Positions 5,310 through 61,044 of a DNA stretch of 64,000 nt are shown here, piece by piece. This DNA is from Owenia fusiformis. Taxonomy: Eukaryota > Annelida > Polychaeta > Sabellida > Oweniidae. Position numbers and translations under genes: made by a program. The DNA is taken from NCBI GenBank assembly GCA_903813345.2, contig CAIIXF020000004.1, positions 15,733,513 to 15,797,512 on the forward strand, read 5' to 3'. Each line of letters opens with the position of its first letter. Within the stretch, counting starts at the first letter, position 1. Under the pieces are notes generated by a model that saw nothing but the letters and a program-made list of their open reading frames with translations, was not told the origin of the DNA and ran no database searches.

Positions 5310-5640
5310 CAGTGGGAAATGAGTGATATGGTAGAAATGTCAAAGGTCCCGATGAAAGTCAGATATGAAGCCGCCATGGTCCTCAGCGGAGTTGGCGATG
5401 CATTGGGCTACAGAAATGGATCCTGGGAATTCTGCATTTTTGGAAAAACCATACACGAAGAATTGAAAAGTTTAGGAGGAGTTGAAAATATTGAGATAAA
5501 GTGTATGTACTTGATCATCGACGATTTTTGTCGATTGACTTGATCTAGCAATCATATCACCTAATCAGTTGTTTAACATTTTGAAAATGCACTTTTTGTT
5601 TTCCATCTACATTGTATTTCTTACACTTTTCGATAGACCT

Positions 5641-6230: not shown

Positions 6231-6287
6231 AAAATTAGTATTCCTTTTTATTTCAGTACCCGATTGGAAGGTCAGTGACGATACAGT

Positions 6288-7865
6288 TTAGTTTAAGTTT
6301 AATATAGTTTATTTTTGTGTCACAAGCATGTTAAAATACATTTAAAACATTTTAAAAACATTTGCTTCCAGCCGATGCCGGCTTATGAGACACCATATGG
6401 TACATGTATACAAAATATTCATTTTTCAACAAAATATTCAATTTTCAATGTAAACTTACTAAATGCAAAATAAACAGTCATAGAGACCATGTATACAAAG
6501 TTCATTGTTCCTTTACTTATACTGAAAGGAGACATCTTCCCCAAGGTTGATGTTCCTGTAGATAAGTGGAAAAAGAAACCATGATCAATTGGTGATGTGA
6601 GGGCCCTCTGGTTGGTCCAATACCCCCAAAGGGGTCCCCCCAATGTAGTAGATTTACAGAGTTGCTATTATGTTATACATTATTATGGAAATATTTATGC
6701 ATCATTTATACATTATGACAGTATCACAATTCTAAATAGTGAGTAAAAGGTGCTGTAAAGTGGCAAAATCGATTTTATATGGCCTCCATCCAGTCATACT
6801 ATATAAATATATAACTGACCATTGACAGATAACATTTCTGTGCTTATAACAAAATAGAATATGAGACAATTCATTAGTTTGCTATTCTTGAGTAATTACA
6901 AATATAGGTTCTGTTAAAGTCTTTCTAGATCAAAGTTCCTTTTACTGAACATCTTAAACAGTGTACTTGCAAAGGTTCTCTGTATACAGGGTGTGTGCAT
7001 AAGTCTAGAGAACAGCATAATATGATCATTTGTACCAGTATCAATGTTAGGGGCCAGTGTATTAACAGAAGCTAGAAAATTATTTCTCAAATCATTGTAG
7101 TGAGAGCACCTGAGAGTGAAGTGTATCTCATCCTCAATCTCATTAGTGTCACATAAAGCACATTTTCGTTCCTCTAGGGGTGTATTGGTATAACGGCCTG
7201 TTTCAATGTTCAGTTTTAATGCTCCAGTTCTTAGTTTTGCAAGGATACTTCTATGATGGCGAGGCATAAACATTTCAATGTACGCTTCGGTTGATGCACC
7301 ATATTTAAATTGACGATATGTTCTAAGTTTGTTGCCATTTGTTTCATTATTTTTATCGTTCCAGATATTTCGAAGAAAAGGATCAATAGTTTGGAGGTGA
7401 TATTTAATAGCTTTAATACATGGTTTTATCTCAATGTACTGATTGTTCAGAAGTATACCACAAGATTCAATGAAATGTTTTGTGCGGAAATTCCAGCTTG
7501 ATTTTCTTCGTAGTGACCATATATGTATCCGGTTATTTAGTCTGGTATTTTCCATATTGTGGAGTCGCAAATATAGTCGGGCACACTCCAACTTTTGCTT
7601 GTGGATAGGAGGGCTCCATCCCATGTCACCTCTCGCTCCTTCATTGCTTGTCTTTTGGCCTACTCCTAGGAATATTTTTGTTGCTTTATTTTGTACATTA
7701 TTGATACAGCGATGCTCATTTAGACCAATGATTGAGGTACCATAATTTATGATTGGCTGAACTATTGTATCATATAGCTTTGTATAAACTGCATAGTCCA
7801 TTCCGCCTGCAGCTTTGAATTTACATGTTAACACTGCCAGGGCACGACTAGCTGACTTTGCTATT
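6288..7865 (-). mobile_element. 5'-truncated non-LTR retrotransposon inserted in ADPRH exon 2
   Basis: The element reads on the minus strand. It is flanked by a direct duplication of TACAGT (6282-6287 and 7866-7871). Removing the element and one duplicate restores the coding order SDDTVMHIATAE. The 3' end is AT-rich (TTAAACTTAAACTAA on the minus strand) with no long poly(A). The 5' end stops inside the reverse transcriptase frame, typical of incomplete target-primed reverse transcription. The clade is not clear; the C-terminus resembles CR1/I/jockey-type LINEs more than L1. Confidence 0.85.
6914..7865 (-). CDS. LINE reverse transcriptase C-terminal fragment
   Basis: This is an uninterrupted frame of about 317 codons running from the truncated 5' end of the LINE to a stop. 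It begins in the thumb/post-RT region (AKSASRALAVLTCKFKAAGG, then QPIINYGTSIIG). It ends with a cysteine-histidine cluster, CALCDTNEIEDEIHFTLRC, typical of LINE ORF2 C-termini. The catalytic palm with its YxDD motif lies beyond the truncation and is missing, so the product cannot be active. The lack of stops indicates a fairly young insertion. There is no AUG start at the beginning; the first in-frame methionine is internal. Confidence 0.8.
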
Positions 7866-8242
7866 TACAGTCATGCACATTGCAACTGCTGAAGGTATGC
7901 AAACGTGTGAATAGATTTACGAGCCTAAGATCATTTTGACATATATTCGCCAATATTTTTTATATATATATTTATTTTCACATGTTATTTACAGATTATC
8001 ATTGTTTGTTTACTGAATACATATTATATTGGCAATGGCCATGGTATCATGGTATCCTACGTGACAGAAAGCATCTTACTATAAAGCACGGTCGTCCTTC
8101 TGTCCCTCACTCTGCATGTCCGGATATCTCCTTGATCGTTCAACCTTGGGTCATCACTTAGGGGCTTGTTAGAGCCCTCATGTGCGTCAGATCACATCTT
8201 TTAAGAAAAGGAAGGTCATTATTGAAACATAAAAAAGTTTGT

Positions 8243-8345: not shown

Positions 8346-9371
8346 TCAACAAGTAAAAAATCAGGGTAAAAAACAATGGAAGCAATACATCGACTAGTTG
8401 TTGAGAAATTTGACTAAGTCTTGAAAATACTAGGAAATCAGAAAATCTTATTTCGACCTGATGAAAAATTAGTACATTTCAGTCTATTGCTTTCTTAATA
8501 TATGTTAGTTCCAGGGAGTACTTCATCTGATTATTGATGATTGGTTAACATGAAGTCAAATTTGTGGGTCAAGGTCATTCCAAGGCCCAATATTGATATC
8601 TAGGTATTTGGCGTTTTAAGGCCATTTTGGCGCTGCTGTAATCATTGGTAATGGTGACCCACTCGAACGGATAGATAATACCGGCAAAGCACAAAATATG
8701 GAATTAAACACAAACACCTGGAGCTATAGAACATGTTGAACTCGTTGTAGGTCCACAAATATAGATCATTATAAGCAAGGTAAGATTTGAAGAACAACCT
8801 GAGTATATGTACAAGGCCAAATCCCACATAGTGCACAAGTGGCGTGGGTTGACCACCAAAAATCTTTCAAACATGCTTTGATACTATACTCTATTTAAGA
8901 ATTTCTGTAAAGTTATATCGTTTTAACACGTTTTCGTTTTAGCTTTGATTCAACATGGAACAAGAGATGATGTAGGCTTATTGTATGTTGATCTTGGAAC
9001 TAAATACAAAGAATGTATGCGTGATATGAAGGGCAGAGCACCTGGTAATACTTATTCTAAAGAGGCAAGATTTTTTAAACAAACTTATGGTTGACGTTTG
9101 TTTGAAACCTTATTTAACATGGTACCTCACTGCTAGCCAAAGCTTCCTCATCGTTTAAAGTAAAGATGTACTGTTTAAATACGTAATATCAGTTTATACG
9201 TTGTCCCCTTCTTCTGTAGGTCTTACATGTAAAGTAGGGCTAAGTAGTCTACGCCCTCTTGAAAAGGGTGGTTTAAATATACCCTTCAACCCTAGGTAAG
9301 GGCTATTTCTGTTCTAAAACACTACAAAAATAACACGTTTTACTCTTAAATTATATTTCATTTACAATATA

Positions 9372-9821: not shown

Positions 9822-10500
9822 TAGATTAGCAGATGTTTCATTTCTGTGTTCCTAATGTCAGGCAACAATTGTTTAAGGATTTAAGCACTGGACTAGATAC
9901 ATTATTTGCTGAATCGTACCATGAAGGTGTAAATTCCAAATCGTTGCATGACTGCGCAGCGGGAATGCAAAGTTTAGAAAACAACGCTTGCGTTGAATGA
10001 AACAGCTACGATGCATTGAGTCTTGGGCTTAAATTATTTTCACACATTGCAAAATATTTTCTACAAACTCACATAAAATATACAAAATCAGAAAGAACAT
10101 GTTTTCAATGAAACTTTTTGCAAGGGTCAAGTTGATCTGGCAAAGCATGACTTTTAATCTCCTCACCTTGACAACCGTAGACAACAAATGCGTTATTGAT
10201 TATTTCACGCACTGTTGTCATGCGAAATGCTGTGTTCGGATTGGCAAGAATCGGACACACCTTGCCTAGCTATGTGTGAATTACTATTAAATGTTGTTTA
10301 TAATGTTAGGGGAGTAGGATGTGGGGCCTCTATGCGAGCAATGTGTATAGGACTGCGTTATCCAAAGTAAGTGCTTTGAACATGCTTAAAAGTATAGTCA
10401 TACATTACCTGTAGCATATCGTTATATTTATTACACATTTGAAAAAATTGATTAAAACATGAAAGATGATTTGGAAATGGAAAAACGCTTTAGGGAGGGG

Positions 10501-10592: not shown

Positions 10593-10753
10593 TCCGGCGT
10601 TTATTCATTCATGATCAAGTAAGAAGTCTTGAGTTAAGACATTTAAGCTCTGAATTCCTTGTTATATTTACAGAGAAGAAGATATTGGTCAACTGATTGC
10701 CGTTGCCATGGAATCGGGGAGAATGTCACACAATCATCCGACCGGTTACCTAG

Positions 10754-11039
10754 GTGAACAGTACTGTAAGTATAAGGGGCCAGTGGCCACGACGCTCCAA
10801 TGATCGCCTATGATGCTTTACTCTGTGCTGGTATCGACTGGGTGAAACTATGTGAACAGTAAGTATAGGGGGCCAGTGGCCATGATGCTCCAATGATCGC
10901 CTATGATGCCTTACTCCGTGCTGCGAGTGACTGGGTGAAACTATCTGAACAGTACTGTAAGTATAAGGGGCCAGTGGCCATGATGCTCCAATTATCGCCT
11001 ATGATGCCTTACTCTGTGCTGCGAGTGACTGGGTGAAAC
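10754..11039 (+). repeat. Exon-derived tandem array, block 1 (three copies)
   Basis: Each unit of about 95 bases holds one copy of the ADPRH exon encoding GHDAPMIAYDALLCA through DWVKLCE, followed by its donor GTAAGT and only about 17 further bases (ATAAGGGGCCAG) before the next copy. The array starts directly at the end of exon 6, with no normal intron between. Copy 1 (10784-10858) has an open frame and ends in the phase required by the exon at 12781. Copy 2 is also open. Copy 3 has point changes and runs into the transposon at 11040. Confidence 0.85.
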
Positions 11040-12073
11040 TGTGGCGAAGTTGAGTCTCTCTATCTTTTACAAAACATGAAAACAAATATAGTTTAAAATA
11101 TAAATTTATTAAAGAAAAGTCCAAAAATATCATTTCAATCAGTTACTTACAGTTTTTGGTTAGTCCCGAGTTCACGCAACGAGGTTCTGAGGTTTCAATG
11201 CTAAAAATGCCTCTTTTATAATGTTAATTTTGAGGTGGGCAGAGCCGAAATAAGAGGTCTTATTCAATAAAATATGAAGAAATCTCATTAACTAAAATTG
11301 GCCGAAAAATGAATGTTTAATTTTATAGAAAGTCAATAAGGAATAGTGATGATTTTCTGCCCACGAATCTTGAATGTTTACCGAAAGTTTGAGAATTTGG
11401 CAGAATTTGGTGGGAAAGGAATGTCTAGACAAAACCTCTGAGCCTCGTCTCATGAACTCTGGATGCTTAATCTAATTATCTAATTTAGTTCATTATCTAA
11501 TTTATGTCCAAAACACATATTTATACGTCAATTTTCACCCTAAAAAGTATACAATTATTCGTAAAATGTGATGTAGATTACAAAGGTATAAACATTTGCA
11601 AAGTATATACAGCAGTATTGATGTTTTGGTCAGTTGTACTCCAGGTCGTTAGGTTTAATCGCTTTTTACTTTGTTTATCAGAAATTTGCAGTCTTCAAGA
11701 TGATGCCAAAAACTATCCAAACTTATAAACATCTTAACTAAACATTGCAAAATTTCCCATCAGTTGACTTCATATATCATTTCTGCCACTCATATCTCAA
11801 GAATAATCCGTTCGTTTGATTGGCTCTAGATATATTTCATGCCTAAAAACTGCTCTAATATGATGATAAAACATAGGAAATTAAACAGTTGATTTGTGAA
11901 ATATCACACTGAGTTCAAAGATCCCCAAAACAATGGTTATAATACAAATATAAACTAATCAAAATAACGCAATAATTATAAATATGAGTAACAGAATAAG
12001 ATCATTGTGACATCAACTGATGTGAAGTGAAACAAGTAGACTGACCAACGAGGTCAGCTATGACTTCGTCACA
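11040..12073. mobile_element. DNA transposon inserted in the exon array
   Basis: Inverted ends TGTGGCGAAGT and the complement of ACTTCGTCACA are flanked by a 4-bp duplication AAAC (11036-11039 and 12074-12077). Other array copies show the uninterrupted site GGGTGAAACGATGTGAACAG, which confirms the insertion. A second inverted repeat of about 28 bases (GAGTTCACGCAACGAGGTTC at 11168; partner ending at 11462) marks a smaller element nested inside. No coding sequence is seen. Confidence 0.75.
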
Positions 12074-12692
12074 AAACGATGTGAACAGTACTGTGAGTAT
12101 AAGGGGTCAGTGGCCATGATGTTCCAATTATCGCCTATGATGCCTTACTCTGTGCTGCGAGTGACTGGGTGAAACTATGTGAACAGTACTGTAAGTATAA
12201 GGGGCCAGTGGCCATGATGCTCCAATTATCGCCTATGATGCCTTACTCTGTGCTGCGAGTGACTGGGTGAAACTATGTGAACAGTACTGTGAGTATAAGG
12301 GGTCAGTGGCCATGATGCTCCAATTATCGCCTATGATGCCTTACTCTGTGCTGCGAGTGACTGGGTGAAACGATGTGAACAGTAAGTATAAGGGGCGAGT
12401 GGTCATGTTCCAATGATCGCCTATGATTTTCTACTCTGTGCTGGTATCGACTGGGTGAAACTATGTGAAACATGCCCATGGTGAAACTATGTGAACAGTA
12501 AGTGTAAGGGGCCAGTGGTCATTATGCTTCAATGATCGCCATGATGCTTTACTCTACTGTGCTGGAAGTGACTGGGTGAAACTATGTGAACAGTAAGTAT
12601 ACATGTAAGGGACCAGTGGCCATGACGCTCCAATGATCGCCTATGATGCCTTACTCTGCTGGTAGCAACTGGGTGAAACTTTGTGAATACGT
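12074..12692 (+). repeat. Exon-derived tandem array, block 2 (six copies)
   Basis: This continues the array after the transposon. Copies 4-6 are close to each other, sharing the ATTATCGCC variant and the TACTGTAAG/GTGAG spacer. Copies 7-9 are diverged, with frameshifts (GATTTTCTACTC, GCCATGATGC, CTCTGCTGG) and an extra partial piece near 12455-12490. The last copy, nearest the next true exon, is frameshifted and reaches a stop, so normal splicing from it would not give a full protein. Confidence 0.85.
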
Positions 12693-12907
12693 TACCATAA
12701 AATTGAGGGGCCAGGTCAAAATATCAGTATTTAAGTTGGGGTTATTCTGTATTTTACATGAGTTTATTTTTATACTTTAGTGGTGCATTACATGGTGGTG
12801 ACTCTGATAGCACGGGTGTAATGGCTTGCTGCTGGTTTGGTGCACTCTATGGATTTCAAGGTGTACCAGTGTGCAATTATAAAGTAAGTGATCTATGAGA
12901 TTGAAGA

Positions 12908-13339: not shown

Positions 13340-13587
13340 AATCCCATTGTTTGTTCAGTCTTGTTTTAAAATCTAGCTTCAAAAAAATAAACATTTCTAT
13401 CGCCTATAGATCAGAAGGAAGATTTGAACTATATCATATTGTTTATTGTTTATTATTATTATTATCAAAATATAAAATCATTCAATACAAAGTAATGGAT
13501 GGATGTTGGCACAATGCACATGTTGCATAAGTTACCTGTTGTCAAAAATACTGTTGCAACAATTTCGTTATAACAGAAAAGTGTATA

Positions 13588-14233
13588 CAGGGTGTCCCGA
13601 AAGTATGCCCCCCCCCCCCTAGGCAGACATATTCCAGTGTCCTCATAGTATGTGTCATATATCATTTTAAAGCTTATCCAAAGTTACATTGATTTGCCAA
13701 GTATCATGGTTTAACTCCCAAATGGTAAAAAGTTACAGTCATTTTAAAAGTTAGTGTTTTGTCAAAATAAAGTTCAATTTTACACCACATTACTAGTCAA
13801 TGAGTCCCCCCTTGGCCATGTTAACACCCGCAATTATTTTCAGATATGACCTTAAAAGCCCTTTAAATAGCGGTGTGGAATTTTATAACCTTCTTAAAAC
13901 CTGTTAAGGCACTTTAGAAGAGTTTCCTTAGAGTTTCTACCCTCACCGTTCTCTTTTTCCAACTCAATATCCATCCGACCGGATAAAGATTGCTGCTGTT
14001 TTAGATGGCCCAGGAGGACACACTGACGAGTGATTTGGTGTAAAATTGAACTTAATTTTGACCAAACACTAAATTTTGAAATGCCTGTATTTTTTTCACA
14101 TTTGAGAGTTGAACCATGATACTTGGTGAATCAATGTAACTTTGGATAAGCTTTAAAATGATATAGGACACATACTATGACGACACTGGTATATGTCTGC
14201 CTAGGGGGGGGGGCATACTTTCGGGACACCCTG
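13588..14233. mobile_element. Foldback element with CAGGGTGTCCC ends, TA target site
   Basis: The termini CAGGGTGTCCCGAAAGTATG are inverted and flanked by TA, as in Tc1/mariner elements. The inverted arms are long, about 200 bases, and start with a C13 run on the left and a G9 run on the right. The core, about 13790-14035, has no coding sequence. Confidence 0.85.
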
Positions 14234-14502
14234 TAGATAATTTTTTTATTTCAGAGAGATAAAACAAGCTCAAATATGAAGGGGTGAAATATGTGTATAG
14301 CATCGTGAATAGCCCTATTAAGATTAATCAAATATTATTTTGGTAAATAAATGTCATATTTATAAAAATTATAAATGTGTTAAGCACAAACTTCAATAGT
14401 TGATAATTTTATTTTGGAAAATTAGCATTTTAGTCCCTCATTCTTTCAAAATTCATCAATATCATACCATGAAAATAGTATATCTATTTGTTTTTTTATG
14501 GT

Positions 14503-15686: not shown

Positions 15687-15959
15687 TGAGGTAATGTAAT
15701 GAAACAAGATAACACGCCATGTTGCAGACGTGATGATCTTTCTTATTCTGATTGCATTGAATATCATATTGCAGCTATTGTTATTTTCAAATGAAAAGCT
15801 ATCGACTTGGTAGATTTTTAATCCTTGGCAACCCCAGACTGAAAGTCTTGCAAAAGTAGGCTAATACATAATTTATTGACAATTTAATTTTAGGATTTAG
15901 AGTATAAACAACGACTCATGGACTGCGCTGATGGGTTGTATGCCTTGAGTCAGATCTAA

Positions 15960-19700: not shown

Positions 19701-22700
19701 ATTTTTATTTTAGATTCTATAATTTCTAAACAATTCTGGTAATTGTTCCACCTTTAAATTGATATATATCTGAATAATTAGTTTTCCTATAAGAGGCAAG
19801 TTCCCCATAGCCACTATAGCTGATAAGAAGAATGTCACACAATCCAAGAATATGGAAATCAAGGGCCACCTTTTTCAAACCGATACAAGCTGAGTTTTTG
19901 TCTTCAGTGAGATCAGTATGTGTTATGGGACCTTCTGTATCCAGTATAATATCAGGGAATTCCAGCAGCGCCATCTTTCTAACTTCCTCAGAATCAGTTG
20001 TGATAAAAACTTTTGTTGTTGATGGATTCTCATTTACTTTACCATGTAGGAAGTCCCAAACTTTTTCTATGGTTGATATGTCATTTCGGGGGCCATAATC
20101 AATTGGTATTGTTGGATTGGTGCCTATACGGACCTGGCCACACAAAAGGGTTGAACCTTGGTCTGGTTTGGCCACCTGCATAAAAGAATTCAATTCAGCT
20201 TGGAGAGAGGAGTTTAGTTTGAATAACTTATCATAGAAATGGGTGAAAATTTGGTGAGCCCTTTGACTTTTAAATGGTATGTTGGTTTGAGCACTAGTGG
20301 TGCTTTCCATTGGTTGTGCATTTGTAGTCATGCCTGAGTCGCTTCTAATTGGTATATGCTCAGCATTTTTTAATTGTTCATTACTTTCCAATGGTGTATT
20401 ACTTATGCTTTCCAACAATGTTTCACTTTTTGCATCACTGAAGTTTTCCAATGGAGTATTTTCAGTGACAACTTTTTTGTTTTCTAATGGTACATCACCA
20501 TTTACACCAATATAACTTTCCAAAGGTGTATTATTTCCAGCTGGATGGTTATTAATACTTCTATCAATGAACCTAAACTCTGAAGGATTATACCCTAGTT
20601 TCCAAATATCATGATGATATAGCTCATTCCCTGCAAAGTCCTTAAACTGATCTATATTGCTCTGTATCATCAAAACATCTACTTGCCTATATCTTTCACT
20701 TACATGAATTGTACTATTACGAACAATGTATTCACTCCCCCGTTTGTTGTTCACAAATCCTATCCAATCAGCAGTTACATTCATGGTATCAATTTCAATA
20801 TCCTGATTCCATTGTATTTCATTTGGGACAAGGACATTGGTTATAGAACATGGATTCGTGTAATCCATAAGGAATGTCCTGTTCATCATAATTGACCATA
20901 TATAGGCGGATAACATGCCTTTGAGTCTATCTGCCCAGCCTCCACATGGTACAGGAATGTCCTTGCTACACTGGTATACAACATATTGTTCTGGTTTGAC
21001 ATTATTGACATCCCAGTCTTCAGTATTATTATTGACATCAGATTTGTAAAAATTATTGGCATCGGGTTCCGGAGTGACACTGACATCAGAGTTTGAAACA
21101 TTAATGATGTCAGCTTCATGAATATTACTAACATCAGGTTTAGAAAAATCATTAACATCCAAGTGAAGAACATTCTTTACATCAGAATAAGGAATATTGT
21201 TGACACTGTAATCAGAAATATTGTTGACATCAGATTCAGGAAAGTTTCTGACATCATTTTTATAAATATTGTTTATTTCAGTTTCAGGAATATTGCTGAC
21301 ATCAATTTTGTAAATATTGTTTATATCAGATTCAGGAACATTACTGACATCATTTTTGTAAATATTGTTAATATCAGATTCAGGAATATTACTGACATCA
21401 TTTTTGTAAATATTGTTGACATCGGATTCAGGAACATTGCTGACATCATTTTTGTAAATATAGTTAATATCAGATTCAGGAATATTTCTGACATCATTTT
21501 TGTAAATATTGCTGACATCAAATCCAAGAACATTGCTGACATCATTTTTGTGAGAGCTGTTTTTATCAGATTCAGGAATATTGCTGACATCATTTATGTA
21601 AATATTGTTGATATCAGGATCAGGAACATTGCTGACATCATTTTTGTAAATATTGTTGACATCAGATTGTTCATGAATATTATTTTGCTTAATGTATTCA
21701 CTTGTACTGGATCCAATATCTCCATAGCTTGAATTTCTATCTAAATCTCCATGTGTCTCATTCTCAGCAATGACTCTATCCATGGAGACATATCCTATCT
21801 CATAATGTTCATGTTCGGAAAGTAGTATGCTATATATGACGTAGAAGATTAGAAGTATGAATATTATAGCTCCAATTCTGTTTTTCGTCATTGTTTTGCT
21901 GTTTGTTCTCATTGTGTTAAAAATGTCAGAAATTCATTTTATGGATTTAGCTCTTTTGTTTATGATTACTGGAAATTGCATGTATATTATGTAAAATAAC
22001 ACTAGTGTGTAAATCATATACTAGTGTGCATCTAGAAGGGTATAATGGCCTTACAAATACACATAATCATGACATGTGTTATGAATAATTTATGGTATCC
22101 AGATTCCAGAGGAACTGTTTTATTGACTGTCTGATGGGCAAATGATATGATTACATGACATGATTATCATCAACCATATGTTTTATGCGTCTTAAAACAT
22201 ACTCTTGTCCTGGTCTTTCTTGGAATTTCCTTCTCTGTACTGGATAGGGTTCCTATATACTGTACGACAGTCCCTCTTGAAGCTTTACATGCAAAATTAA
22301 ATGTTTTTGATAGTGTTATGATCACTGGCTAATTTATGCTCACATGATATCAAAAAAGTGAAGATTGTCCCTGCAAATTAGTTATCCCTGCTAACAGGGA
22401 AGAAGAAAAGTACTAATGACCAATACCTTCTGTGACAAGTCAGATATTTTTTTATTTTCCATGTTAGCAGATATAAGGAGTTTTAAAATCCAATCCTTTA
22501 AATGTTCTGTTAAGACTCCTCTTTATTTATTTTTTTCCTAAAATACATATTAGATAGAGATAACAGCTTAGGTTGTCTGCTTCATCAGATTCATTAACTA
22601 TTCCCTCAATGGGTGACAGTTTATTACAATGTTAAGTTTGTTGTTCAAAATGCAAAAAACTACATACTTTCGAGAACTTATCTCATAGTTGTTAATAATG

Positions 22701-26428: not shown

Positions 26429-29365
26429 TCAAGTAATAATTTAATACAATTCAAGTACAAGCTTCATTAAATACAAGTAGTTCTTTCATATAGATATATG
26501 TACTATGTCTATAAATCATTTTTAAATAGTAATAATAACACAAAATTATTACATGATCTTACTGACTCCATTCACACCCATTCATTACGTTCGTGCATGC
26601 ATTCATTCACCCACTATTCATACATTGACTATGACACAAATTTGTAAAATAAGAATTTATTTGTTTATTCATAAAAGTCTATATAAAGCATGTATGTCTA
26701 CACCCTTTTGATCAAGCAGCTTAACACTGTTCAAATATATTCTCAGATAATTGGTAAATTTGAAAAAGTACGGTAATTCATTTTCTAAAAAAGATTTGTA
26801 TATGACATATTTCATAATTAGTATGCACAGATTTAGTTCTGCCCCTTTTTCTCTATTCCCGATAATACCTAATAAAATATCATTTTCAGTTAGATTTAAT
26901 TCTTTATTTAGTTTTAGTTTCCACCATTCAATAAATTGCTTCCATATATCTTTTGTTATTCTACACTTCACCAGCAAGTGCTCCATGGTATGAGTATCAT
27001 CACACCATGGACATTTGTCTGTCTGTGAAATGTTCATCATTTTTAATTTACGGTTGCACGCTAGTGTATTCGTAAGTATTTTGTACTGAAAGCTCCACAT
27101 TTTAGTTTCATATGTAACCTTTTTTGCAAGTGTATAATAGTATTTCATGTCATTTTCATTTACATTGTTATTTTGTATCCACTTTGTTAGTGATGTGGGT
27201 TTCTCGATTTCTTTTTCAAGGATTTTGTTGTAAATAGCTTTACACGACAATTGACTAGGGTTAGGAACATTTTTCTTTGAAGGGTTGTTTTTCAATGTGC
27301 TATTTTTAAGAGTTTTCCATTTTTTGGGAATAGCACTGAGTATGCTGGCATACTTTAAAAAGTCTATAGGAATGTTGAATTTTCGTTCAAGTTCTGTCAG
27401 GGATAAATAGTTATTATCTCTGTCTAGGATGTCATAAATTGTTGCAATACCTGCTTGATGCCATGTTTTATCGTACACCATTTTATTATTGACTAAAATG
27501 TTTTTATTATTCCATATAACTTCATCTTTAACATCATTCCAATTATTGACATCATGATGGGTTACTTCAGCCCATGTTCTAAGCATTGCTAAGTAAAATT
27601 TGGGAATTGCTTTATAGTTTTCAAAATACTTTATGTCATAATTACACTGAGAGAGAAGACCAATTCCACCATGTGGTTCAATGAATAAACTTGGAATTTC
27701 TTTCCATGCTGACTGCCCTTTCTCTAACAATCGTTTTATCCATGTGCATTTTAGTGATTGATCCATAATATCATAATCTTTCATTTTTAACCCCCCTTGT
27801 TCAATTTCAGCAATAAGTGATTTTCTTTTTACTTTTGGTGGTTTCTTTTTCCACACAAATTCGAAAATAATTTTGTTTATTTCTTGTAAAATTTGGGGTG
27901 GTATATGCATAACTGAACTAACATATGTTAGCTGAGAAATACCTAAAGATTTAATAATTTGAATTCTACCTATTAGTGTTAAGTTTCTCATATTCCATAA
28001 TTTTATTTTATTTTTCATTTCATCAATTTTCTTTTCAATATTCAATTTTGTTCTATCATCTATATCATAAGTAAATGTTATTCCCAAAGCTTTTACACTG
28101 GTTTTTGATTTAATTCCATTTATGTCTTGTTTGTTTCCTTTATCTCTTCCGATCCACATTATTTCAGTTTTGTCTTTGTTAATTTCTAAGCCAGAGCATT
28201 TACCAAACTTTTCCACTAATTCTAAGGCATTATTTGCAGACTCTTGATCATTTAAAAATATAGTAGTGTCATCAGCATACTGACAAAGCTTGACTTCATA
28301 TTTATCCTTAATAGGAATTCCTTTTACATTTCGATCAGATCTAATTGCAATACTTAATAATTCGGCAACAAGTATAAAAATTACCCCAGAGAGTGGGTCA
28401 CCTTGGCGAACTCCCCTTTCTAATTGGAACCATTCAGATGTGTATCCATTATTTATGACACAACTCTGTGGTTTTGCATATATCGCATTAACATAATTTA
28501 TAAGTGTTTCCCCAAAATTGAATTTTTCTAGTGTTTTTATCATAAACTTCCAGTCAATGCTATCAAATGCTTTCTTATAATCAATTAAAAGAAGAAGACC
28601 TTTAATGTTGTTTGTCTTTGTGTAATCCAGCATATCATAAATTAGTCTTATACTTTGTCCTATATATCTGTTTTTAACATACCCAACTTGGTCACTGTGT
28701 ATCAGTTTTGGTAAAATATCTCTGAAACGTTCACTAATAGTTTTTGTACATATTTTATAATCCACGTTTAAAAGAGTTAATGGTCGCCAATTTGTGAGAT
28801 GTTGCCTATTTTTCCCCTTTTTTGGAATAAGAGAAATAATTCCTCTATTTTGCGAAATTGAGAGTTCTCCTTTTATAAGTGAATAGTTGAAGCTATCTGT
28901 CATTTCTAGTTTAATCTCATCCCAAAAGATACAATAAAATTCAGCTGTAAGACCATCTGTCCCTGGCGTTTTATTCTTTTTAAAAGTTTTTAACGATTTA
29001 TAACATTCTTCACATGTAATTCTCTTGTCGCAATTTTCTTTATCAATATTATCAATTGTTGGAATTTCATTTTGAAAAAATATGTTTGAATATTTACCAT
29101 CCGGGTCATTATTCTTTTTACTATATAAATCTTTGTAAAATGATTCTTCTGTTTGTAATACTTGTTTGGGGTCATTAACAAAAACACCTCTTTTATCATA
29201 AATAGAATTTATCACTTTATTGGAGTAATTATGCTTTTCTAAATTTAGAAAGTATTTGCTTGATCGTTCACCATACTCACACCACCGTGCTTTGGATCTC
29301 ATTATACTACTTTGTGTTTTTCTATCCTGTATTAATTCTACTTTAAGTTTGCATGTATTATATTT
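26307..29365 (-). mobile_element. 5'-truncated L1-like LINE
   Basis: This is a minus-strand LINE flanked by GTATGGGAATAT at 26295-26306 and 29366-29377. On the plus strand it begins with a T run (26306-26336) and a second T run (26391-26426), meaning a 3' poly(A) tail with an internal interruption. It is 3.06 kb long and lacks the 5' region, the endonuclease and the start of ORF2. It is inserted in the MITE at 25110-29439. Confidence 0.9.
26669..29302 (-). CDS. L1/Tx1-like ORF2 reverse transcriptase, N-terminally truncated
   Basis: This is an 877-codon frame without stops, and it is open further to the LINE's truncated end at 29365. RT motifs appear in order: KNKTPGTDGLTAEFY (about residues 109-123), NWRPLTLLNVDYKI, LLLIDYKKAFDSIDW, LERGVRQGDPLSG and the catalytic YADDTTIF. 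After the thumb come a long linker and a cysteine-histidine cluster, CPWCDDTHTMEHLLVKC, near the C-terminus. The apurinic endonuclease domain expected before the RT is missing because of 5' truncation, so it is not mobile alone. The long intact frame suggests a young insertion. Confidence 0.9.
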   Translation of the reverse strand: MRSKARWCEYGERSSKYFLNLEKHNYSNKVINSIYDKRGVFVNDPKQVLQTEESFYKDLYSKKNNDPDGKYSNIFFQNEIPTIDNIDKENCDKRITCEECYKSLKTFKKNKTPGTDGLTAEFYCIFWDEIKLEMTDSFNYSLIKGELSISQNRGIISLIPKKGKNRQHLTNWRPLTLLNVDYKICTKTISERFRDILPKLIHSDQVGYVKNRYIGQSIRLIYDMLDYTKTNNIKGLLLLIDYKKAFDSIDWKFMIKTLEKFNFGETLINYVNAIYAKPQSCVINNGYTSEWFQLERGVRQGDPLSGVIFILVAELLSIAIRSDRNVKGIPIKDKYEVKLCQYADDTTIFLNDQESANNALELVEKFGKCSGLEINKDKTEIMWIGRDKGNKQDINGIKSKTSVKALGITFTYDIDDRTKLNIEKKIDEMKNKIKLWNMRNLTLIGRIQIIKSLGISQLTYVSSVMHIPPQILQEINKIIFEFVWKKKPPKVKRKSLIAEIEQGGLKMKDYDIMDQSLKCTWIKRLLEKGQSAWKEIPSLFIEPHGGIGLLSQCNYDIKYFENYKAIPKFYLAMLRTWAEVTHHDVNNWNDVKDEVIWNNKNILVNNKMVYDKTWHQAGIATIYDILDRDNNYLSLTELERKFNIPIDFLKYASILSAIPKKWKTLKNSTLKNNPSKKNVPNPSQLSCKAIYNKILEKEIEKPTSLTKWIQNNNVNENDMKYYYTLAKKVTYETKMWSFQYKILTNTLACNRKLKMMNISQTDKCPWCDDTHTMEHLLVKCRITKDIWKQFIEWWKLKLNKELNLTENDILLGIIGNREKGAELNLCILIMKYVIYKSFLENELPYFFKFTNYLRIYLNSVKLLDQKGVDIHALYRLL

Positions 29366-29456
29366 GTATGGGAATATATTGATATCTGAGGGTTCAGCCT
29401 AGGACCCCGGCCAAATTTTGTACACAGTGAACCCCCGAGCCTTAGAAGAAGGTAAC

Positions 29457-38473: not shown

Positions 38474-39773
38474 TGTAACATCCCCTCAAAATATACTTTG
38501 GTAGCGTGGTTAAAAGAGAGGGAGATGTTATTGGTTAAAATTATGAACTTTATTTTTAGTTAATTATGGGGGGTGTAAAACATCTGTCTTTACAATGAGT
38601 CTTATAAGAAATAAACTTTTATGTCAAAAGAAAGATGGCGTTCTGGTAAAAATCTCTACATCTTGATTATACTGGAAATTGCCTCATGAAAGGGGGGATA
38701 ATATCATCTTAAAGAAATATAACACGACAAAAGTTTTAAATAAAGAAACATATTTACATGTGTATATTGTTTGGATATAAAACATAAAAAATGACAATAG
38801 TACAGTAATAATTAGTTATGAATATTCAAACTGTGTTCTGGGAGAAGTTTCTATATAAAGTGACTAACATGGACTAACAATGACTAGCACGAATTATAAC
38901 AAGTGACTAACACGAGCTAACAAGTGACTAGCAAGTGACTAGAAAGTGACTAGCAAGTGACTATCAAGTGACTAGCAAGTGACTAACACGAGCTACATGG
39001 TTGGAAATTTGCAATATGAATGCCGGAATTTCCAGAGACTGGGAAAGCTGGACTATGGGGTACTTTGGGAAGGGGAAATACATCTCTCTAATAGGATACA
39101 TGGTCCTGGGACTAGAGGAGATGTAAAGGGGCTCCTGGGCAACTTTTGGGCCGGAGCATTATATACATTTCAAGGTAACTTTCATGTCAAATCTCGAAAC
39201 AGAATGTCATAAAACATATATCAATTTGTTGATCATCATTTGATTAATATAAATATATATTTACCTAACACCAATAGAGTCGGAACACTGCAAAATCGAT
39301 CGAAACGCAGGAGATATATCCATTAGCAGCCTTACAGTTGAAATCTAAACAGAACACAAACCAAACTTCTCAACTGAGGAAAACCTTACGCCGAATTAAT
39401 AAACTAACCTAACAAATAAAAGTATTTCACACCTAACACAGATACCAAAATATGATTAACATAAATACGCTGAATACAGAAGTTGTGATTGAAGTAAATT
39501 GCTTATAATTAATGGTAATTACTGGATAAAATCCTGGGACTATATTCTGCACTATTTGTACCTTTAATATCAATACGCCATCACTGAAAAGTATTTATGT
39601 GGAGATAGGCATTCTTCTTATAGAGTGAATATCATCTGAATGCATATAAACATACAACTTATAAACAATTAAAGTCAAAATCTAATTAAATAAAGAGATA
39701 AATACAGTAACAGCACACCAAATAATAAGAGAAATTATGTTATAAGTATATATGAATTTGGTGGGTTGTTACA
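38474..39773 (-). repeat. LTR copy 1
   Basis: 1,300 bases. A minisatellite of about 11-base units (AAGTGACTAGC) lies at 38859-38993 within it. With the element on the minus strand this is the 3'-most LTR. Confidence 0.85.
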
Positions 39774-42152
39774 CAGCTTCCCTCTTTAATAAGTGTTCGA
39801 CCCGAACACGCTTTAAAAATAAAAAATGGAAGTCCTTGATTTGATAAACATGTAATGTCAGCACCTAAAATTATAGTAATTTTACACTGTCATTATTTTA
39901 TTAGTCTATATATCGCTGCATTCTTCTCTGGATCTGCAATATCAAAGTTCAAAAGTTCATTCACTGCAGTTTATTATCTGCCATCAATCATGGAATGCAC
40001 CAAATGTTCAAACTTCATGCATTTGAGATTATTGCTCAGTGTTCTTTAATGTCTGTAGATTCCCGTAAAAATATGTGAGAGGTTGACAGGTCTGGAAATT
40101 GTAGTGGTGAATCTTCAGCTTGCATCTGATTATGTTGACATCTTCTGTTCTGCATCCCTGAAACATTGCTACACAGACATCCTATCGTGTAGTAGCAATT
40201 CACCAAAAAGTAAACCAATAACGGGACAGGGTCACACCATCACCACAAGCCAAATTTTCATATTCTCACAAATATGGGACACGGGACACATCTTCTCATC
40301 TACAGGGGCAATTTGAATGATCAATTCATTTCTACGGGGATTGGGATACCTTAACAAGTCATCAATCCTGGATAATTCGTAACATTAAGATAAATACAAT
40401 AGCATTCGTTTCCAGGTATCTCGGGACATTGGGATTTTCCTTTGGGACATCCATTCTTTTCGGGTCTAACTTGGACTTTTGGACTAATAATGAGATACTG
40501 TTTCATATAAACAATATGTATTCAAGTTTCATAGAAACCTTCTTATTTGAATTCTATTTGAATTCATTCACCATGGGACAAATGGCTCCATCTTTTGGAA
40601 CTATGTGGAATAATGGGACAGCTCGGACTATCAAGCAATACTACTACGGTCTTTATTAGAACATCACTTGTCTGACTTGATCTACTTGAACAACATCCAC
40701 CTTGTTAATTCATTAAGAAAAATGTCTGGCTGTTCCGGGACTATATACATTATTTACATTGTCTAAGGGGCTACTGTTTACTAACCAGTCTCCAGCTGGC
40801 GAAAAGGACATTTGTACCTTGAGCTCTTTGCCCAAAAGTAACAAACTCAAATGGGAAAATTGCCTTATATACATCAATAAGAACTAATTTATACGGGAAC
40901 AATAGAATCTGTGAGTGTGACTTCACACCAATCCACATCGGATTTAAGCTCAATAACAGACTTCCTACTATTCAGGACAATTAACCCGGCCGGGGCAATA
41001 ACAACATTAAAAGGGTATATCGGACCCTCATCACATCAAATACAGTCTCTGAACTATTCAGGGAATCCAGACCCAGAATGCATGGATGTTGGATACAAGC
41101 AACATACATTGACTATAAGATATTAACCCCTACCCACAGATATTTGACACATCAACTTCCCCTGGGATGGGACATTGATTGCCACTGGTGACAGTTATGG
41201 CCAAAACTGCCTCGCTAAATGTGGGCTTTTAGACCACTCTCGATCTTGACCACCCTCGGTCTCGTTATATGCAAAGGCTATTCGCGATTACACTGACATT
41301 AGCCCCTATTTCGAACCAAACAGTGGAGAACACTGCCTAATCATATAGACAATACTACTTTAACTTATAGGCAATAACACACCTGAATTTCGTATCATCG
41401 GCCCCTTGACTATTTACAAAGATCTCATGTGGGCTGGGATGAGATCTTACTTACAGGTATATACATTATATTTATTATCTAAAAAAGAGCACCTGAATAC
41501 TCAACTTATCGGGTCGGTCTGGTGTACGCACTGTGGTTAGGACATGTGCCATGTTCTGTTGGTGGAGAGACAACAGAACTAGTTATAATTGATGCCAATG
41601 GTATTGACATCATGGACTATAAGAGATTTGGATACAGTGTGTAATATATCACATCTCATGACTGATATTATTGGACACAGTCTGTGATGTACTTGGACTT
41701 AAAGGTAACATTAAAATGGGCATTCATTACCTCGTATGGGTATGCGCGTACCCAAGCTATCTCTTATATGTTCATCATGCCCATCATGACAAACAAAAAG
41801 AGAAACTCACAAACAAGGTATAGACAGGGATAAAACATATCACTATAAATGTGTTACAAAGGCCTTTATGGGCATCGTTCAAGTATCGATGGTTTCACTG
41901 TATTAGAATAATATGGTATGCAAGGTGGGGAAAACATACCATAAGGGTGTATAATGGAGGTGGCCACTATAACAGGAAGTAGATTTAGGGAAAAACTACT
42001 TCATCAATCAAAAGGGACAGTCCCTATGGTAAGCTATGGGGACTGGGTGGTCTGTATAGTTTCATTGTAGGTAACTAAAAACGGACATAGAATCACAAAA
42101 ATCGTGGGTCTTGATAGGGCGGGACCTATCAAAATCCCACCACTGCCACCAG

Positions 42153-43452
42153 TGTAACATCCCCTCAAAATATACTTTGGTAGCGTGGTTAAAAGAGAGG
42201 GAGATGTTATTGGTTAAAATTATGAACTTTATTTTTAGTTAATTATGGGGGGTGTAAAACATCTGTCTTTACAATGAGTCTTATAAGAAATAAACTTTTA
42301 TGTCAAAAGAAAGATGGCGTTCTGGTAAAAATCTCTACATCTTGATTATACTGGAAATTGCCTCATGAAAGGGGGGATAATATCATCTTAAAGAAATATA
42401 ACACGACAAAAGTTTTAAATAAAGAAACATATTTACATGTGTATATTGTTTGGATATAAAACATAAAAAATGACAATAGTACAGTAATAATTAGTTATGA
42501 ATATTCAAACTGTGTTCTGGGAGAAGTTTCTATATAAAGTGACTAACATGGACTAACAATGACTAGCACGAATTATAACAAGTGACTAACACGAGCTAAC
42601 AAGTGACTAGCAAGTGACTAGAAAGTGACTAGCAAGTGACTATCAAGTGACTAGCAAGTGACTAACACGAGCTACATGGTTGGAAATTTGCAATATGAAT
42701 GCCGGAATTTCCAGAGACTGGGAAAGCTGGACTATGGGGTACTTTGGGAAGGGGAAATACATCTCTCTAATAGGATACATGGTCCTGGGACTAGAGGAGA
42801 TGTAAAGGGGCTCCTGGGCAACTTTTGGGCCGGAGCATTATATACATTTCAAGGTAACTTTCATGTCAAATCTCGAAACAGAATGTCATAAAACATATAT
42901 CAATTTGTTGATCATCATTTGATTAATATAAATATATATTTACCTAACACCAATAGAGTCGGAACACTGCAAAATCGATCGAAACGCAGGAGATATATCC
43001 ATTAGCAGCCTTACAGTTGAAATCTAAACAGAACACAAACCAAACTTCTCAACTGAGGAAAACCTTACGCCGAATTAATAAACTAACCTAACAAATAAAA
43101 GTATTTCACACCTAACACAGATACCAAAATATGATTAACATAAATACGCTGAATACAGAAGTTGTGATTGAAGTAAATTGCTTATAATTAATGGTAATTA
43201 CTGGATAAAATCCTGGGACTATATTCTGCACTATTTGTACCTTTAATATCAATACGCCATCACTGAAAAGTATTTATGTGGAGATAGGCATTCTTCTTAT
43301 AGAGTGAATATCATCTGAATGCATATAAACATACAACTTATAAACAATTAAAGTCAAAATCTAATTAAATAAAGAGATAAATACAGTAACAGCACACCAA
43401 ATAATAAGAGAAATTATGTTATAAGTATATATGAATTTGGTGGGTTGTTACA
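42153..43452 (-). repeat. LTR copy 2
   Basis: Middle LTR shared by the two internal regions; matches copy 1 wherever I compared them. Confidence 0.85.
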
Positions 43453-45831
43453 CAGCTTCCCTCTTTAATAAGTGTTCGACCCGAACACGCTTTAAAAATA
43501 AAAAATGGAAGTCCTTGATTTGATAAACATGTAATGTCAGCACCTAAAATTATAGTAATTTTACACTGTCATTATTTTATTAGTCTATATATCGCTGCAT
43601 TCTTCTCTGGATCTGCAATATCAAAGTTCAAAAGTTCATTCACTGCAGTTTATTATCTGCCATCAATCATGGAATGCACCAAATGTTCAAACTTCATGCA
43701 TTTGAGATTATTGCTCAGTGTTCTTTAATGTCTGTAGATTCCCGTAAAAATATGTGAGAGGTTGACAGGTCTGGAAATTGTAGTGGTGAATCTTCAGCTT
43801 GCATCTGATTATGTTGACATCTTCTGTTCTGCATCCCTGAAACATTGCTACACAGACATCCTATCGTGTAGTAGCAATTCACCAAAAAGTAAACCAATAA
43901 CGGGACAGGGTCACACCATCACCACAAGCCAAATTTTCATATTCTCACAAATATGGGACACGGGACACATCTTCTCATCTACAGGGGCAATTTGAATGAT
44001 CAATTCATTTCTACGGGGATTGGGATACCTTAACAAGTCATCAATCCTGGATAATTCGTAACATTAAGATAAATACAATAGCATTCGTTTCCAGGTATCT
44101 CGGGACATTGGGATTTTCCTTTGGGACATCCATTCTTTTCGGGTCTAACTTGGACTTTTGGACTAATAATGAGATACTGTTTCATATAAACAATATGTAT
44201 TCAAGTTTCATAGAAACCTTCTTATTTGAATTCTATTTGAATTCATTCACCATGGGACAAATGGCTCCATCTTTTGGAACTATGTGGAATAATGGGACAG
44301 CTCGGACTATCAAGCAATACTACTACGGTCTTTATTAGAACATCACTTGTCTGACTTGATCTACTTGAACAACATCCACCTTGTTAATTCATTAAGAAAA
44401 ATGTCTGGCTGTTCCGGGACTATATACATTATTTACATTGTCTAAGGGGCTACTGTTTACTAACCAGTCTCCAGCTGGCGAAAAGGACATTTGTACCTTG
44501 AGCTCTTTGCCCAAAAGTAACAAACTCAAATGGGAAAATTGCCTTATATACATCAATAAGAACTAATTTATACGGGAACAATAGAATCTGTGAGTGTGAC
44601 TTCACACCAATCCACATCGGATTTAAGCTCAATAACAGACTTCCTACTATTCAGGACAATTAACCCGGCCGGGGCAATAACAACATTAAAAGGGTATATC
44701 GGACCCTCATCACATCAAATACAGTCTCTGAACTATTCAGGGAATCCAGACCCAGAATGCATGGATGTTGGATACAAGCAACATACATTGACTATAAGAT
44801 ATTAACCCCTACCCACAGATATTTGACACATCAACTTCCCCTGGGATGGGACATTGATTGCCACTGGTGACAGTTATGGCCAAAACTGCCTCGCTAAATG
44901 TGGGCTTTTAGACCACTCTCGATCTTGACCACCCTCGGTCTCGTTATATGCAAAGGCTATTCGCGATTACACTGACATTAGCCCCTATTTCGAACCAAAC
45001 AGTGGAGAACACTGCCTAATCATATAGACAATACTACTTTAACTTATAGGCAATAACACACCTGAATTTCGTATCATCGGCCCCTTGACTATTTACAAAG
45101 ATCTCATGTGGGCTGGGATGAGATCTTACTTACAGGTATATACATTATATTTATTATCTAAAAAAGAGCACCTGAATACTCAACTTATCGGGTCGGTCTG
45201 GTGTACGCACTGTGGTTAGGACATGTGCCATGTTCTGTTGGTGGAGAGACAACAGAACTAGTTATAATTGATGCCAATGGTATTGACATCATGGACTATA
45301 AGAGATTTGGATACAGTGTGTAATATATCACATCTCATGACTGATATTATTGGACACAGTCTGTGATGTACTTGGACTTAAAGGTAACATTAAAATGGGC
45401 ATTCATTACCTCGTATGGGTATGCGCGTACCCAAGCTATCTCTTATATGTTCATCATGCCCATCATGACAAACAAAAAGAGAAACTCACAAACAAGGTAT
45501 AGACAGGGATAAAACATATCACTATAAATGTGTTACAAAGGCCTTTATGGGCATCGTTCAAGTATCGATGGTTTCACTGTATTAGAATAATATGGTATGC
45601 AAGGTGGGGAAAACATACCATAAGGGTGTATAATGGAGGTGGCCACTATAACAGGAAGTAGATTTAGGGAAAAACTACTTCATCAATCAAAAGGGACAGT
45701 CCCTATGGTAAGCTATGGGGACTGGGTGGTCTGTATAGTTTCATTGTAGGTAACTAAAAACGGACATAGAATCACAAAAATCGTGGGTCTTGATAGGGCG
45801 GGACCTATCAAAATCCCACCACTGCCACCAG

Positions 45832-47131
45832 TGTAACATCCCCTCAAAATATACTTTGGTAGCGTGGTTAAAAGAGAGGGAGATGTTATTGGTTAAAATT
45901 ATGAACTTTATTTTTAGTTAATTATGGGGGGTGTAAAACATCTGTCTTTACAATGAGTCTTATAAGAAATAAACTTTTATGTCAAAAGAAAGATGGCGTT
46001 CTGGTAAAAATCTCTACATCTTGATTATACTGGAAATTGCCTCATGAAAGGGGGGATAATATCATCTTAAAGAAATATAACACGACAAAAGTTTTAAATA
46101 AAGAAACATATTTACATGTGTATATTGTTTGGATATAAAACATAAAAAATGACAATAGTACAGTAATAATTAGTTATGAATATTCAAACTGTGTTCTGGG
46201 AGAAGTTTCTATATAAAGTGACTAACATGGACTAACAATGACTAGCACGAATTATAACAAGTGACTAACACGAGCTAACAAGTGACTAGCAAGTGACTAG
46301 AAAGTGACTAGCAAGTGACTATCAAGTGACTAGCAAGTGACTAACACGAGCTACATGGTTGGAAATTTGCAATATGAATGCCGGAATTTCCAGAGACTGG
46401 GAAAGCTGGACTATGGGGTACTTTGGGAAGGGGAAATACATCTCTCTAATAGGATACATGGTCCTGGGACTAGAGGAGATGTAAAGGGGCTCCTGGGCAA
46501 CTTTTGGGCCGGAGCATTATATACATTTCAAGGTAACTTTCATGTCAAATCTCGAAACAGAATGTCATAAAACATATATCAATTTGTTGATCATCATTTG
46601 ATTAATATAAATATATATTTACCTAACACCAATAGAGTCGGAACACTGCAAAATCGATCGAAACGCAGGAGATATATCCATTAGCAGCCTTACAGTTGAA
46701 ATCTAAACAGAACACAAACCAAACTTCTCAACTGAGGAAAACCTTACGCCGAATTAATAAACTAACCTAACAAATAAAAGTATTTCACACCTAACACAGA
46801 TACCAAAATATGATTAACATAAATACGCTGAATACAGAAGTTGTGATTGAAGTAAATTGCTTATAATTAATGGTAATTACTGGATAAAATCCTGGGACTA
46901 TATTCTGCACTATTTGTACCTTTAATATCAATACGCCATCACTGAAAAGTATTTATGTGGAGATAGGCATTCTTCTTATAGAGTGAATATCATCTGAATG
47001 CATATAAACATACAACTTATAAACAATTAAAGTCAAAATCTAATTAAATAAAGAGATAAATACAGTAACAGCACACCAAATAATAAGAGAAATTATGTTA
47101 TAAGTATATATGAATTTGGTGGGTTGTTACA
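45832..47131 (-). repeat. LTR copy 3
   Basis: The 5' LTR in element orientation. The primer-site-like TGGTGGCAGTGG lies just below 45832 on the minus strand. Confidence 0.85.
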
Positions 47132-60538: not shown

Positions 60539-61044
60539 TTTACGTTTTGAGCTCGCAGACACACAGCAACAATCTGAAGCAACCGTTCGTTGAATACCTC
60601 TGAAGTGATACAAATTACAGAATTCACGCTCAAATCGTAGTATTCAAATCTGTCAATTGTAGTTTCATAACCAAAGACGGAAATGATAAATAATTGAAGA
60701 GTCATCATTTGGTAGCTGTTGTGACAATAAGTTCGGATATCTCAAAGCAGAATTGTTGAATTGTTCGAAGACGGAAATAATAAATAATTGACAAGTCATT
60801 AGTTGATAGCTGTGGTGACAAATCGAATATCTCAAAGCAGAATTCTTGAATGGGGTCAACATGTAATAAGAGGTCGTAATAGGACTGAATCATATTTCCA
60901 TTAATCAAATTATTCCATTAATCAAATTAGTTTGTCGCGTGTTTATTAAGTCGGTACATGTTTGTGGTCTCTCGTGAATCCAAGTGTTCTCCGACATCCT
61001 TTCAACCACTGAGAGCCGAAAATTGATAGGTTATTTGATCTAAC
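60539..61044. repeat. Region between the two GPCR genes with a tandem repeat
   Basis: A segment of about 93 bases (GGAAATGATAAATAATTGA to ATATCTCAAAGCAGAATTG) at 60678-60765 is repeated at 60772-60855, with a weaker third copy before it at about 60600-60660. It holds the promoter region of the downstream receptor, but no TATA box or other element is clear enough to call. Confidence 0.6.

What the first reader, a model, noticed from the sequence alone, without database searches (positions are those of the whole stretch)
10754..12692. A coding exon turned into a minisatellite
Nine units of about 95 bases each contain the ADPRH exon encoding GHDAPMIAYDALLCA plus its GTAAGT donor and only about 17 bases of intron. 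Each unit keeps a donor, yet the sequence before each exon copy (ATAAGGGGCCAG) is too short for a normal intron. This creates a ladder of donors without usable acceptors.
Basis: seen in the sequence. Interest (0 to 1): 0.75.

Follow-up and report, generated by a model that had tools for sequence, protein, structure and literature searches.

The report
Exon-intron border multiplied in dead gene
In the broken remains of an animal enzyme gene (ADPRH), the end of one exon together with its splice-donor site was copied nine times in a row; it looks like a harmless relic, of a kind described before in amphioxus.

Summary
The array is real, but its anatomy was misread. Nine units (10784-12714, with a 1-kb gap), preceded by the tail of a tenth (10756-10783), each hold the last 75 nt of ADPRH exon 7, its donor, and the first 18 nt of the FOLLOWING intron. 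In the full-length paralog L001 (contig C9) exon 7 is 225 nt long, so the 'CCAG' before each copy is coding (Ser of Ser-Gly-His-Asp) and ATAAGGGG is the start of the downstream intron. The unit holds no acceptor. Nine GTRAGT donors remain; unit 9 lost its own. A 1,034-bp solo LTR with a 4-bp target duplication splits unit 3. The host gene is a broken ADPRH paralog: a multicopy element (probably a LINE) splits exon 2, a deletion fuses exon 5 to the array (removing the exon 5 tail, exon 6 and the first 150 nt of exon 7), and the last exon stops early. Exon-intron-border minisatellites are known in amphioxus as 'mirages'. Most likely it is neutral slippage debris that once lay in the intron behind a working exon. 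New member of a known kind; modest interest.

The parts
10756..10783 (+). Remnant (unit 0): last bases of an array unit plus its donor (GTAAGT at 10766), fused directly to truncated ADPRH exon 5; the joint lies within GTG (10754-10756), so its exact base is ambiguous
10784..11039 (+). Units 1, 2 and the first part of unit 3: 3' 75 nt of ADPRH exon 7 + donor + 18 nt of intron 7
11040..12073. Solo LTR (TGTGGCGAAG...CTTCGTCACA) inserted in unit 3; 4-bp target duplication AAAC; one search lists 41 matches in the genome, this copy included (a lower bound: 40 of 133 candidates were scored)
12074..12616 (+). Rest of unit 3 and units 4-8
12617..12714 (+). Unit 9: donor lost; after GGGGCCAG (12707-12714) the ancestral intron 7 resumes
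5319..5502 (+). ADPRH exon 1, open frame
6257..6286 (+). 5' half of ADPRH exon 2 (with the Ser-Asp-Asp-Thr codons)
6287..7866 (.). Multicopy insertion splitting exon 2 at ACAG; the 217 nt at its right junction are 100% identical to three other genomic copies. Probably a LINE judged by eye from its 316-aa minus-strand frame; that frame has no Pfam match. The left edge was not tested against other copies
7867..7894 (+). 3' half of ADPRH exon 2 (donor GTATGC follows)
8943..9044 (+). ADPRH exon (2b), open frame
9220..9295 (+). ADPRH exon 3, open frame
10310..10366 (+). ADPRH exon 4, open frame
10674..10755 (+). ADPRH exon 5, truncated after ...HPTGYLG (82 of 122 nt)
12781..12883 (+). ADPRH exon 8 with the GGDSDST motif, open frame
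15894..15959 (+). Last ADPRH exon found; reads into an early stop relative to the C9 paralog L002

Best explanation
This is a 'mirage'-type minisatellite: a tandem array whose unit spans the 3' border of an exon. In a single-copy ADPRH exon 7 a segment running from exon base 151 to about 18 nt into intron 7 was tandemly duplicated, probably by replication slippage or template switching between two similar GGGGCCAG-like octamers, one in the exon and one at the intron start (inferred). The first, complete exon could keep splicing from its own donor to exon 8, so the extra copies would simply have lain in intron 7 (inferred). The array then grew and was homogenised inside, most clearly u3-u6, which differ at 0-1 of 59 exon positions (differences shown, process inferred). 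An LTR retrotransposon landed in unit 3 and left a solo LTR (shown). A deletion fused exon 5 to the tail of a unit, removing the rest of exon 5, exon 6 and the 5' 150 nt of exon 7 (shown by comparison with L001), and a multicopy element split exon 2 (shown). What remains is a broken ADPRH paralog with nine donor-like sites, most likely neutral. No function is needed to explain it.
For: Two single-copy paralogous exons on C9 match the unit at 89%. In both, the unit start is internal to a continuous exon (225 nt in L001), and in L001 the donor is followed by GTAAGCATAAGGGGCCA, i.e. the unit's own intron part. Behind unit 9 the ancestral intron resumes: GGGGCCAGGTCAAAATATCAGTATTT against L001 GGGGCCATGACAAAATATCAATATG. 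L001 is a collinear ADPRH/ARH1 (Pfam PF03747, 213.8 bits; PDB 6iux, 3hfw and 6g28, E 1e-126 to 9e-126), and the solved protein also reads GSSGHDAPM through this point. The would-be acceptors in the array have 25-35% pyrimidines at -23..-4 (n = 9), against 55-80% in the 20 real acceptors of the three genes that I tabulated. Inner units u3-u6 are nearly identical; u7 and u9 are divergent. The LTR ends and 4-bp target duplications agree with three other copies.
Against: No RNA, reads or second haplotype were available, so neutrality and past splicing are inferred. The founding junction can no longer be read: the octamer GGGGCCAG is matched at 6 of 8 bases in the L001 exon and 7 of 8 in the L002 exon, and at 7 of 8 (L001) and 6 of 8 (L002) at the intron start; the L002 intron has a further insertion there. 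Residual exons look constrained (pairwise omega 0.14 and 0.21 against the two paralogs), which only bounds when the gene died. Unit 0 could itself be the founder, so the order deletion-then-expansion is not excluded.
Confidence: 0.88

Rival explanations
1. One reading: each unit is a complete mini-exon with a donor and a too-short upstream intron (18-nt GT...AG segments that might be spliced or skipped).
For: The segments between copies, such as GTAAGTATAAGGGGCCAG, do start with GT and end with AG, and splicing from donor i to unit i+2 would span about 110 nt.
Against: The AG is coding in both C9 paralogs and the segment is continuous in the solved ARH1 protein. There is no polypyrimidine tract (0.25-0.35 against 0.55-0.80). 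Reading on from exon 5 stops in unit 1. Indels change the frame between units.
Confidence: 0.04
2. The array is functional: a ladder of U1-binding donor sites that suppresses premature polyadenylation or buffers splicing in a still transcribed gene, possibly now a pseudoenzyme or non-coding RNA.
For: Nine consensus donors in 895 bp, 0.31 expected. Exons 1, 2b-5 (5 truncated) and 8 are open, with low dN/dS over exons 2b-5 and 8. A splice from the first GAACA|GT to exon 8 would keep frame (by eye).
Against: Donor 9-mers are not better kept than the exon part of the units (3 of 81 changes, counted by eye on nine donors with the lost donor of unit 9 left out, which favours the donors, against 40 of 643; Fisher p 0.46). 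Exon 2 is split by an insertion. By the L001 model 296 nt of coding sequence are absent, 371 nt in a product that skips the array.
Confidence: 0.05
3. Assembly artefact (collapsed or falsely expanded repeat).
For: Only one assembly was available, and tandem arrays are often mis-assembled. Elsewhere in the window two neighbouring 3,679-bp units are 100% identical, which could be such an error.
Against: Unit sequences differ (all-site pairwise 1-25%), the LTR interrupts one unit with its own target duplication, and the flanks on both sides are gene-derived. Exact copy number could still be wrong.
Confidence: 0.03

Closest known systems
Amphioxus 'mirages': minisatellite-like tandem duplications of exon-intron boundaries (globin BflGb6 and BflGb9; Adh3)
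   Same: Unit spans an exon-intron border and repeats the splice signal; unit identity 81-100% in BflGb6, with homogenised units and array edges excluded from it; either 5' or 3' border can be copied (PMC3087553, section 16 read).
   Different: Here the copied border is the donor side, nine-plus units of 93-116 bp, in a gene that is now broken, with a solo LTR inside. Matches fall on contigs C1-C12 only, which does not suggest amphioxus (19 chromosomes, recalled). Length polymorphism and splicing were examined in amphioxus, not here.
Lancelet PGBD5 (60 and 108 bp) and troponin C repeats over splice sites
   Same: Tandem repeats over splice sites (imperfect in PGBD5), judged not to disturb mRNA (PMC3902484, one passage seen).
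   Different: Functional genes in lancelet; here a pseudogene.
[quoted passage not shown] potato RdRp)
   Same: Tandem duplication places GT and AG sites next to each other (PMC4974935, passages seen).
   Different: No usable acceptor arises here, so no new intron can be claimed.
Internal tandem repeats in human segmental duplications
   Same: Minisatellite expansion reshapes exon and intron borders in duplicated genes (PMC2812944, passages seen).
   Different: Human genes, with transcript evidence; here a broken gene without any.

Membership tests
'Mirage' exon-intron-boundary minisatellite | Head-to-tail tandem units | tested here: met
'Mirage' exon-intron-boundary minisatellite | Unit spans an exon-intron border of the single-copy ancestor | tested here: met
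   75 nt exon + 18 nt intron, by comparison with L001; exon part also with L002
'Mirage' exon-intron-boundary minisatellite | Many but not all units keep the splice signal | tested here: met
   8 of 9 units plus the remnant keep GTRAGT
'Mirage' exon-intron-boundary minisatellite | Interior homogenised, edges divergent | tested here: met
   u3-u6 differ at 0-1 of 59 exon sites; u9 from all others at 5-9 of 56-57; u1 from u2-u6 at 6-7 of 59, but u1 is close to u8 (3 of 58); u7, not at the edge, is as divergent (5-12 of 57-59) (its first 15 exon nt left out because u7 is misaligned there). No tree was built
'Mirage' exon-intron-boundary minisatellite | Copy-number instability among alleles or tissues | not testable with these tools
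   One assembly, no reads
'Mirage' exon-intron-boundary minisatellite | Regular splicing of the host mRNA is undisturbed | not testable with these tools
   No RNA; host gene is now broken
ADPRH (ARH1), PF03747, for the source gene | Whole-length match to the family and to solved ARH1 | tested here: met
   For paralog L001:
ADPRH (ARH1), as a working enzyme in the window | Uninterrupted coding sequence | tested here: not met
   Exon 2 split; exon 6 and parts of exons 5 and 7 not found in the window; early C-terminal stop
Solo LTR | TG...CA ends and short target duplication at a single LTR | tested here: met
   AAAC here; matching 4-bp flanks at 3 of 3 other copies examined, chosen from the 40 other matches listed
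Intron gain by tandem duplication | Usable new acceptor with polypyrimidine tract | tested here: not met
   (pyrimidine content only; no splicing assay)

The most novel reading that the evidence does not exclude
Exon-border minisatellites ('mirages') are not a peculiarity of amphioxus but arise in other animal phyla. Here a donor ladder lived for a long time in the intron of a working, constrained ADPRH gene, because only the first exon copy had an acceptor. Donor-side copies are thus invisible to splicing, and such arrays accumulate as raw material for intron and exon change until an accident breaks the gene.
Probability: 0.35. Interest if true: 0.45.

Novelty: new member of a known kind. Interest (0 to 1): 0.3.

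Why it matters
It offers a case, with two single-copy paralogs in the same genome for comparison, of how a tandem array starts at an exon border. It also suggests why a ladder of good donors can be harmless: the duplicated segment starts inside the exon, so no copy carries an acceptor. If such arrays are common outside amphioxus they would be a source of gene-prediction errors (false exons) and a possible route to new introns.

Tried and rejected
Rejected: an 18-nt mini-intron between exon copies (the AG is coding; no polypyrimidine tract). Rejected: the missing exon parts having moved elsewhere in the window (searched with L001 pieces, found only chance-level hits, best E 0.025). Rejected: donors under special selection (p 0.46; unit 9's lost donor left out of that count). 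Unresolved: whether the array is older than the death of the gene. Window-branch dN worked out by hand from the three pairwise values is about 0.058, an upper bound on neutral time; u9 against the other units at exon sites gives 0.044-0.079 per lineage (half of the distances). The ranges overlap, so timing is only suggestive.

An early thought that exon 2 had lost its Asp-Asp codons was wrong: searches showed exon 2 split by an insertion, with those codons in the 5' half. I first called that insertion a LINE; its longest frame has no Pfam match, so 'probably a LINE' rests on reading the frame by eye. The search with a wrong-frame translation of exon 5 gave nothing useful, and the exon 3 translations printed are in a wrong frame (the right frame is). 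tblastx of L001 against L003-L005 gave no match, so these other PF03747 loci were not used. Searches for such arrays in print; one search found nothing. The original Adh3 paper (PMC117041) is not held and is known here only through PMC3087553. That minisatellites may start by slippage between short direct repeats is taken from a passage of PMC2820488. The dS/dN counts use a simple Nei-Gojobori script on 417 nt (exons 2b-5 and 8 only).

Full report
Observation. TRF finds 93-98-bp arrays at 10755-11040 and 12074-12469. Cutting at AGTGG[TC]CA gives nine units starting at 10784, 10877, 10975, 12111, 12209, 12307, 12400, 12516 and 12617. A tenth, partial unit (its last bases and donor, 10756-10783) precedes unit 1. 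Lengths are 93, 98, 98, 98, 98, 93, 116, 101 and 98 nt, the third with the LTR taken out and the ninth counted to the end of GGGGCCAG at 12714. Units differ by 1-25% over all aligned sites. Within the array nine GTRAGT donors occur on the + strand; the rest of the window has 22, which predicts 0.31 for the 895 bp taken as array.

The LTR. The array is interrupted by 1,034 bp (11040-12073). The search lists 41 matches in the genome, this copy included, with 40 of 133 candidates scored, so a lower bound. Some lie in groups 5.5-5.6 kb apart (on C3, C5, C8 and C9), as LTRs of one element would. Its ends are TGTGGCGAAG and CTTCGTCACA. AAAC stands on both sides, and taking out the insert with one AAAC leaves a normal unit, identical at that place to unit 6. 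Three other copies, chosen from the 40 other matches, end at the same bases with matching 4-bp flanks. It is a solo LTR inserted in unit 3, so the array most likely existed when it landed.

What the unit is. Searching the genome with the array finds, outside it, two single copies, both on contig C9 (such counts are lower bounds). They lie in two ADPRH genes about 8.5 kb apart (L001 and L002). In L001 the exon is 225 nt, starts after ...ATATCTTTGCAG, and contains the unit start as an internal point...GGTTCCAGTGGTCATGACGCTCC.... The unit equals the last 75 nt of this exon plus GTAAGCATAAGGGGCCA(T), the first 18 nt of the following intron. L002 agrees in the exon; its intron start is less similar, with an insertion (GTAAGCATAACTTAAGTGACCAG). 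The spliced L001 product is a collinear ADPRH/ARH1 (PF03747, 213.8 bits; solved ARH1, human as I recall, E about 1e-126), and the solved protein also reads SSGHDAPM without a break. After unit 9 the ancestral intron resumes (GGGGCCAGGTCAAAATATC).

Splicing signals. Pyrimidine content at -23..-4 is 0.25-0.35 at the nine would-be acceptors and 0.55-0.80 at the 20 real acceptors of the three genes that I tabulated. The ladder of donors without acceptors is therefore real, but it follows from where the duplication began. Reading on from exon 5 into the array meets a stop in unit 1. Five of nine donors are shifted by a TACTG insertion. The donor 9-mers are no better kept than the exon part of the unit (3 of 81 against 40 of 643 changes, p 0.46; the first count by eye, unit 9's lost donor left out).

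State of the host gene. Exons 1, 2b, 3, 4 and 8 are open and keep splice sites. Exon 2 is split at its ACAG by a multicopy insertion (6287-7866) whose 217 nt at the right junction are 100% identical to three other copies, so it is probably young. It is probably a LINE by eye, but its frame has no Pfam match. Exon 5 stops after ...HPTGYLG and is fused to the array remnant. The exon 5 tail (40 nt), exon 6 (106 nt) and 150 nt of exon 7 are missing and were not found elsewhere in the window. The last exon meets an early stop relative to L002. Pairwise dN/dS over 417 nt is 0.14 (window-L001), 0.21 (window-L002) and 0.26 (L001-L002): the lineage was constrained for much of its history, which fits a fairly recent death but does not date it.

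Order of events (inferred). A duplication between GGGGCCAG-like octamers in exon 7 and intron 7 (6-7 of 8 matches in the paralogs) made the first extra copy. This would be harmless, because only the first copy has an acceptor and its own donor comes first. Expansion and interior homogenisation followed: u3-u6 differ at 0-1 of 59 exon sites, u9 from all others at 5-9 of 56-57. Then came the LTR, the deletion and the exon 2 insertion, in unknown order. Whether the array predates loss of constraint is not settled: the neutral-time bound (about 0.058) overlaps the array's age (0.044-0.079 per lineage). Expansion after the deletion is not excluded.

Comparison. Tandem repeats over exon-intron borders were named 'mirages' in amphioxus Adh3 and globin genes (PMC3087553, section 16 read) and are mentioned for lancelet PGBD5 and troponin C (PMC3902484, one passage). 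The structure here meets the sequence criteria; instability and splicing could not be tested. The two papers using the name are both on lancelets; the library holds only open-licence papers, so cases elsewhere may be in print. The genome (498 Mb, 525 contigs; all matches on C1-C12) fits the published Owenia fusiformis assembly (505.8 Mb, 12 chromosome-scale scaffolds; PMC9977687, passages); this identification is a guess.

Verdict. A real, well-explained relic: a donor-side exon-border minisatellite in a broken ADPRH paralog. New member of a known kind, modest interest.

Noticed in passing
L002 (contig C9), positions 1686-1761 and 1841-1916 of its reverse complement: The neighbouring ADPRH paralog carries two tandem copies of exon 3 (76 nt each, 62 of 76 identical, 155-bp period), each with AG before and GTTAGT after, and both open in the gene's frame. 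76 nt is not a multiple of 3, so using both would shift the frame: candidate mutually exclusive exons.
   Followed up: partly
window 19726-21933 (-): 735-aa open frame (no Pfam match) containing an in-frame 48-bp minisatellite (21216-21668, 9.4 copies) encoding NNIYKNDVSNIPESDI-like repeats.
   Followed up: partly
window 38858-46215 and on: Two neighbouring 3,679-bp units are identical at 3,679 of 3,679 bases, and a third begins after them but matches only in part (1,670 of 3,679 without gaps): a very recent tandem duplication or an assembly error.
   Followed up: partly
window about 13585-14235: Inverted-repeat element with ends reading GGGTGTCCCGAAAGTATGCCCCCCC, probably a MITE, in the intron after exon 8 (read by eye).
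   Followed up: no
window 26669-29398 (-): 909-aa open frame with a reverse transcriptase (PF00078, 136.1 bits) and zf-RVT domain, probably a LINE.
   Followed up: partly
window 59291-60643 and 61045-62310 (-): Two very similar single-exon rhodopsin-type GPCR frames in tandem (PF00001, 75.5 and 76.7 bits).
   Followed up: partly
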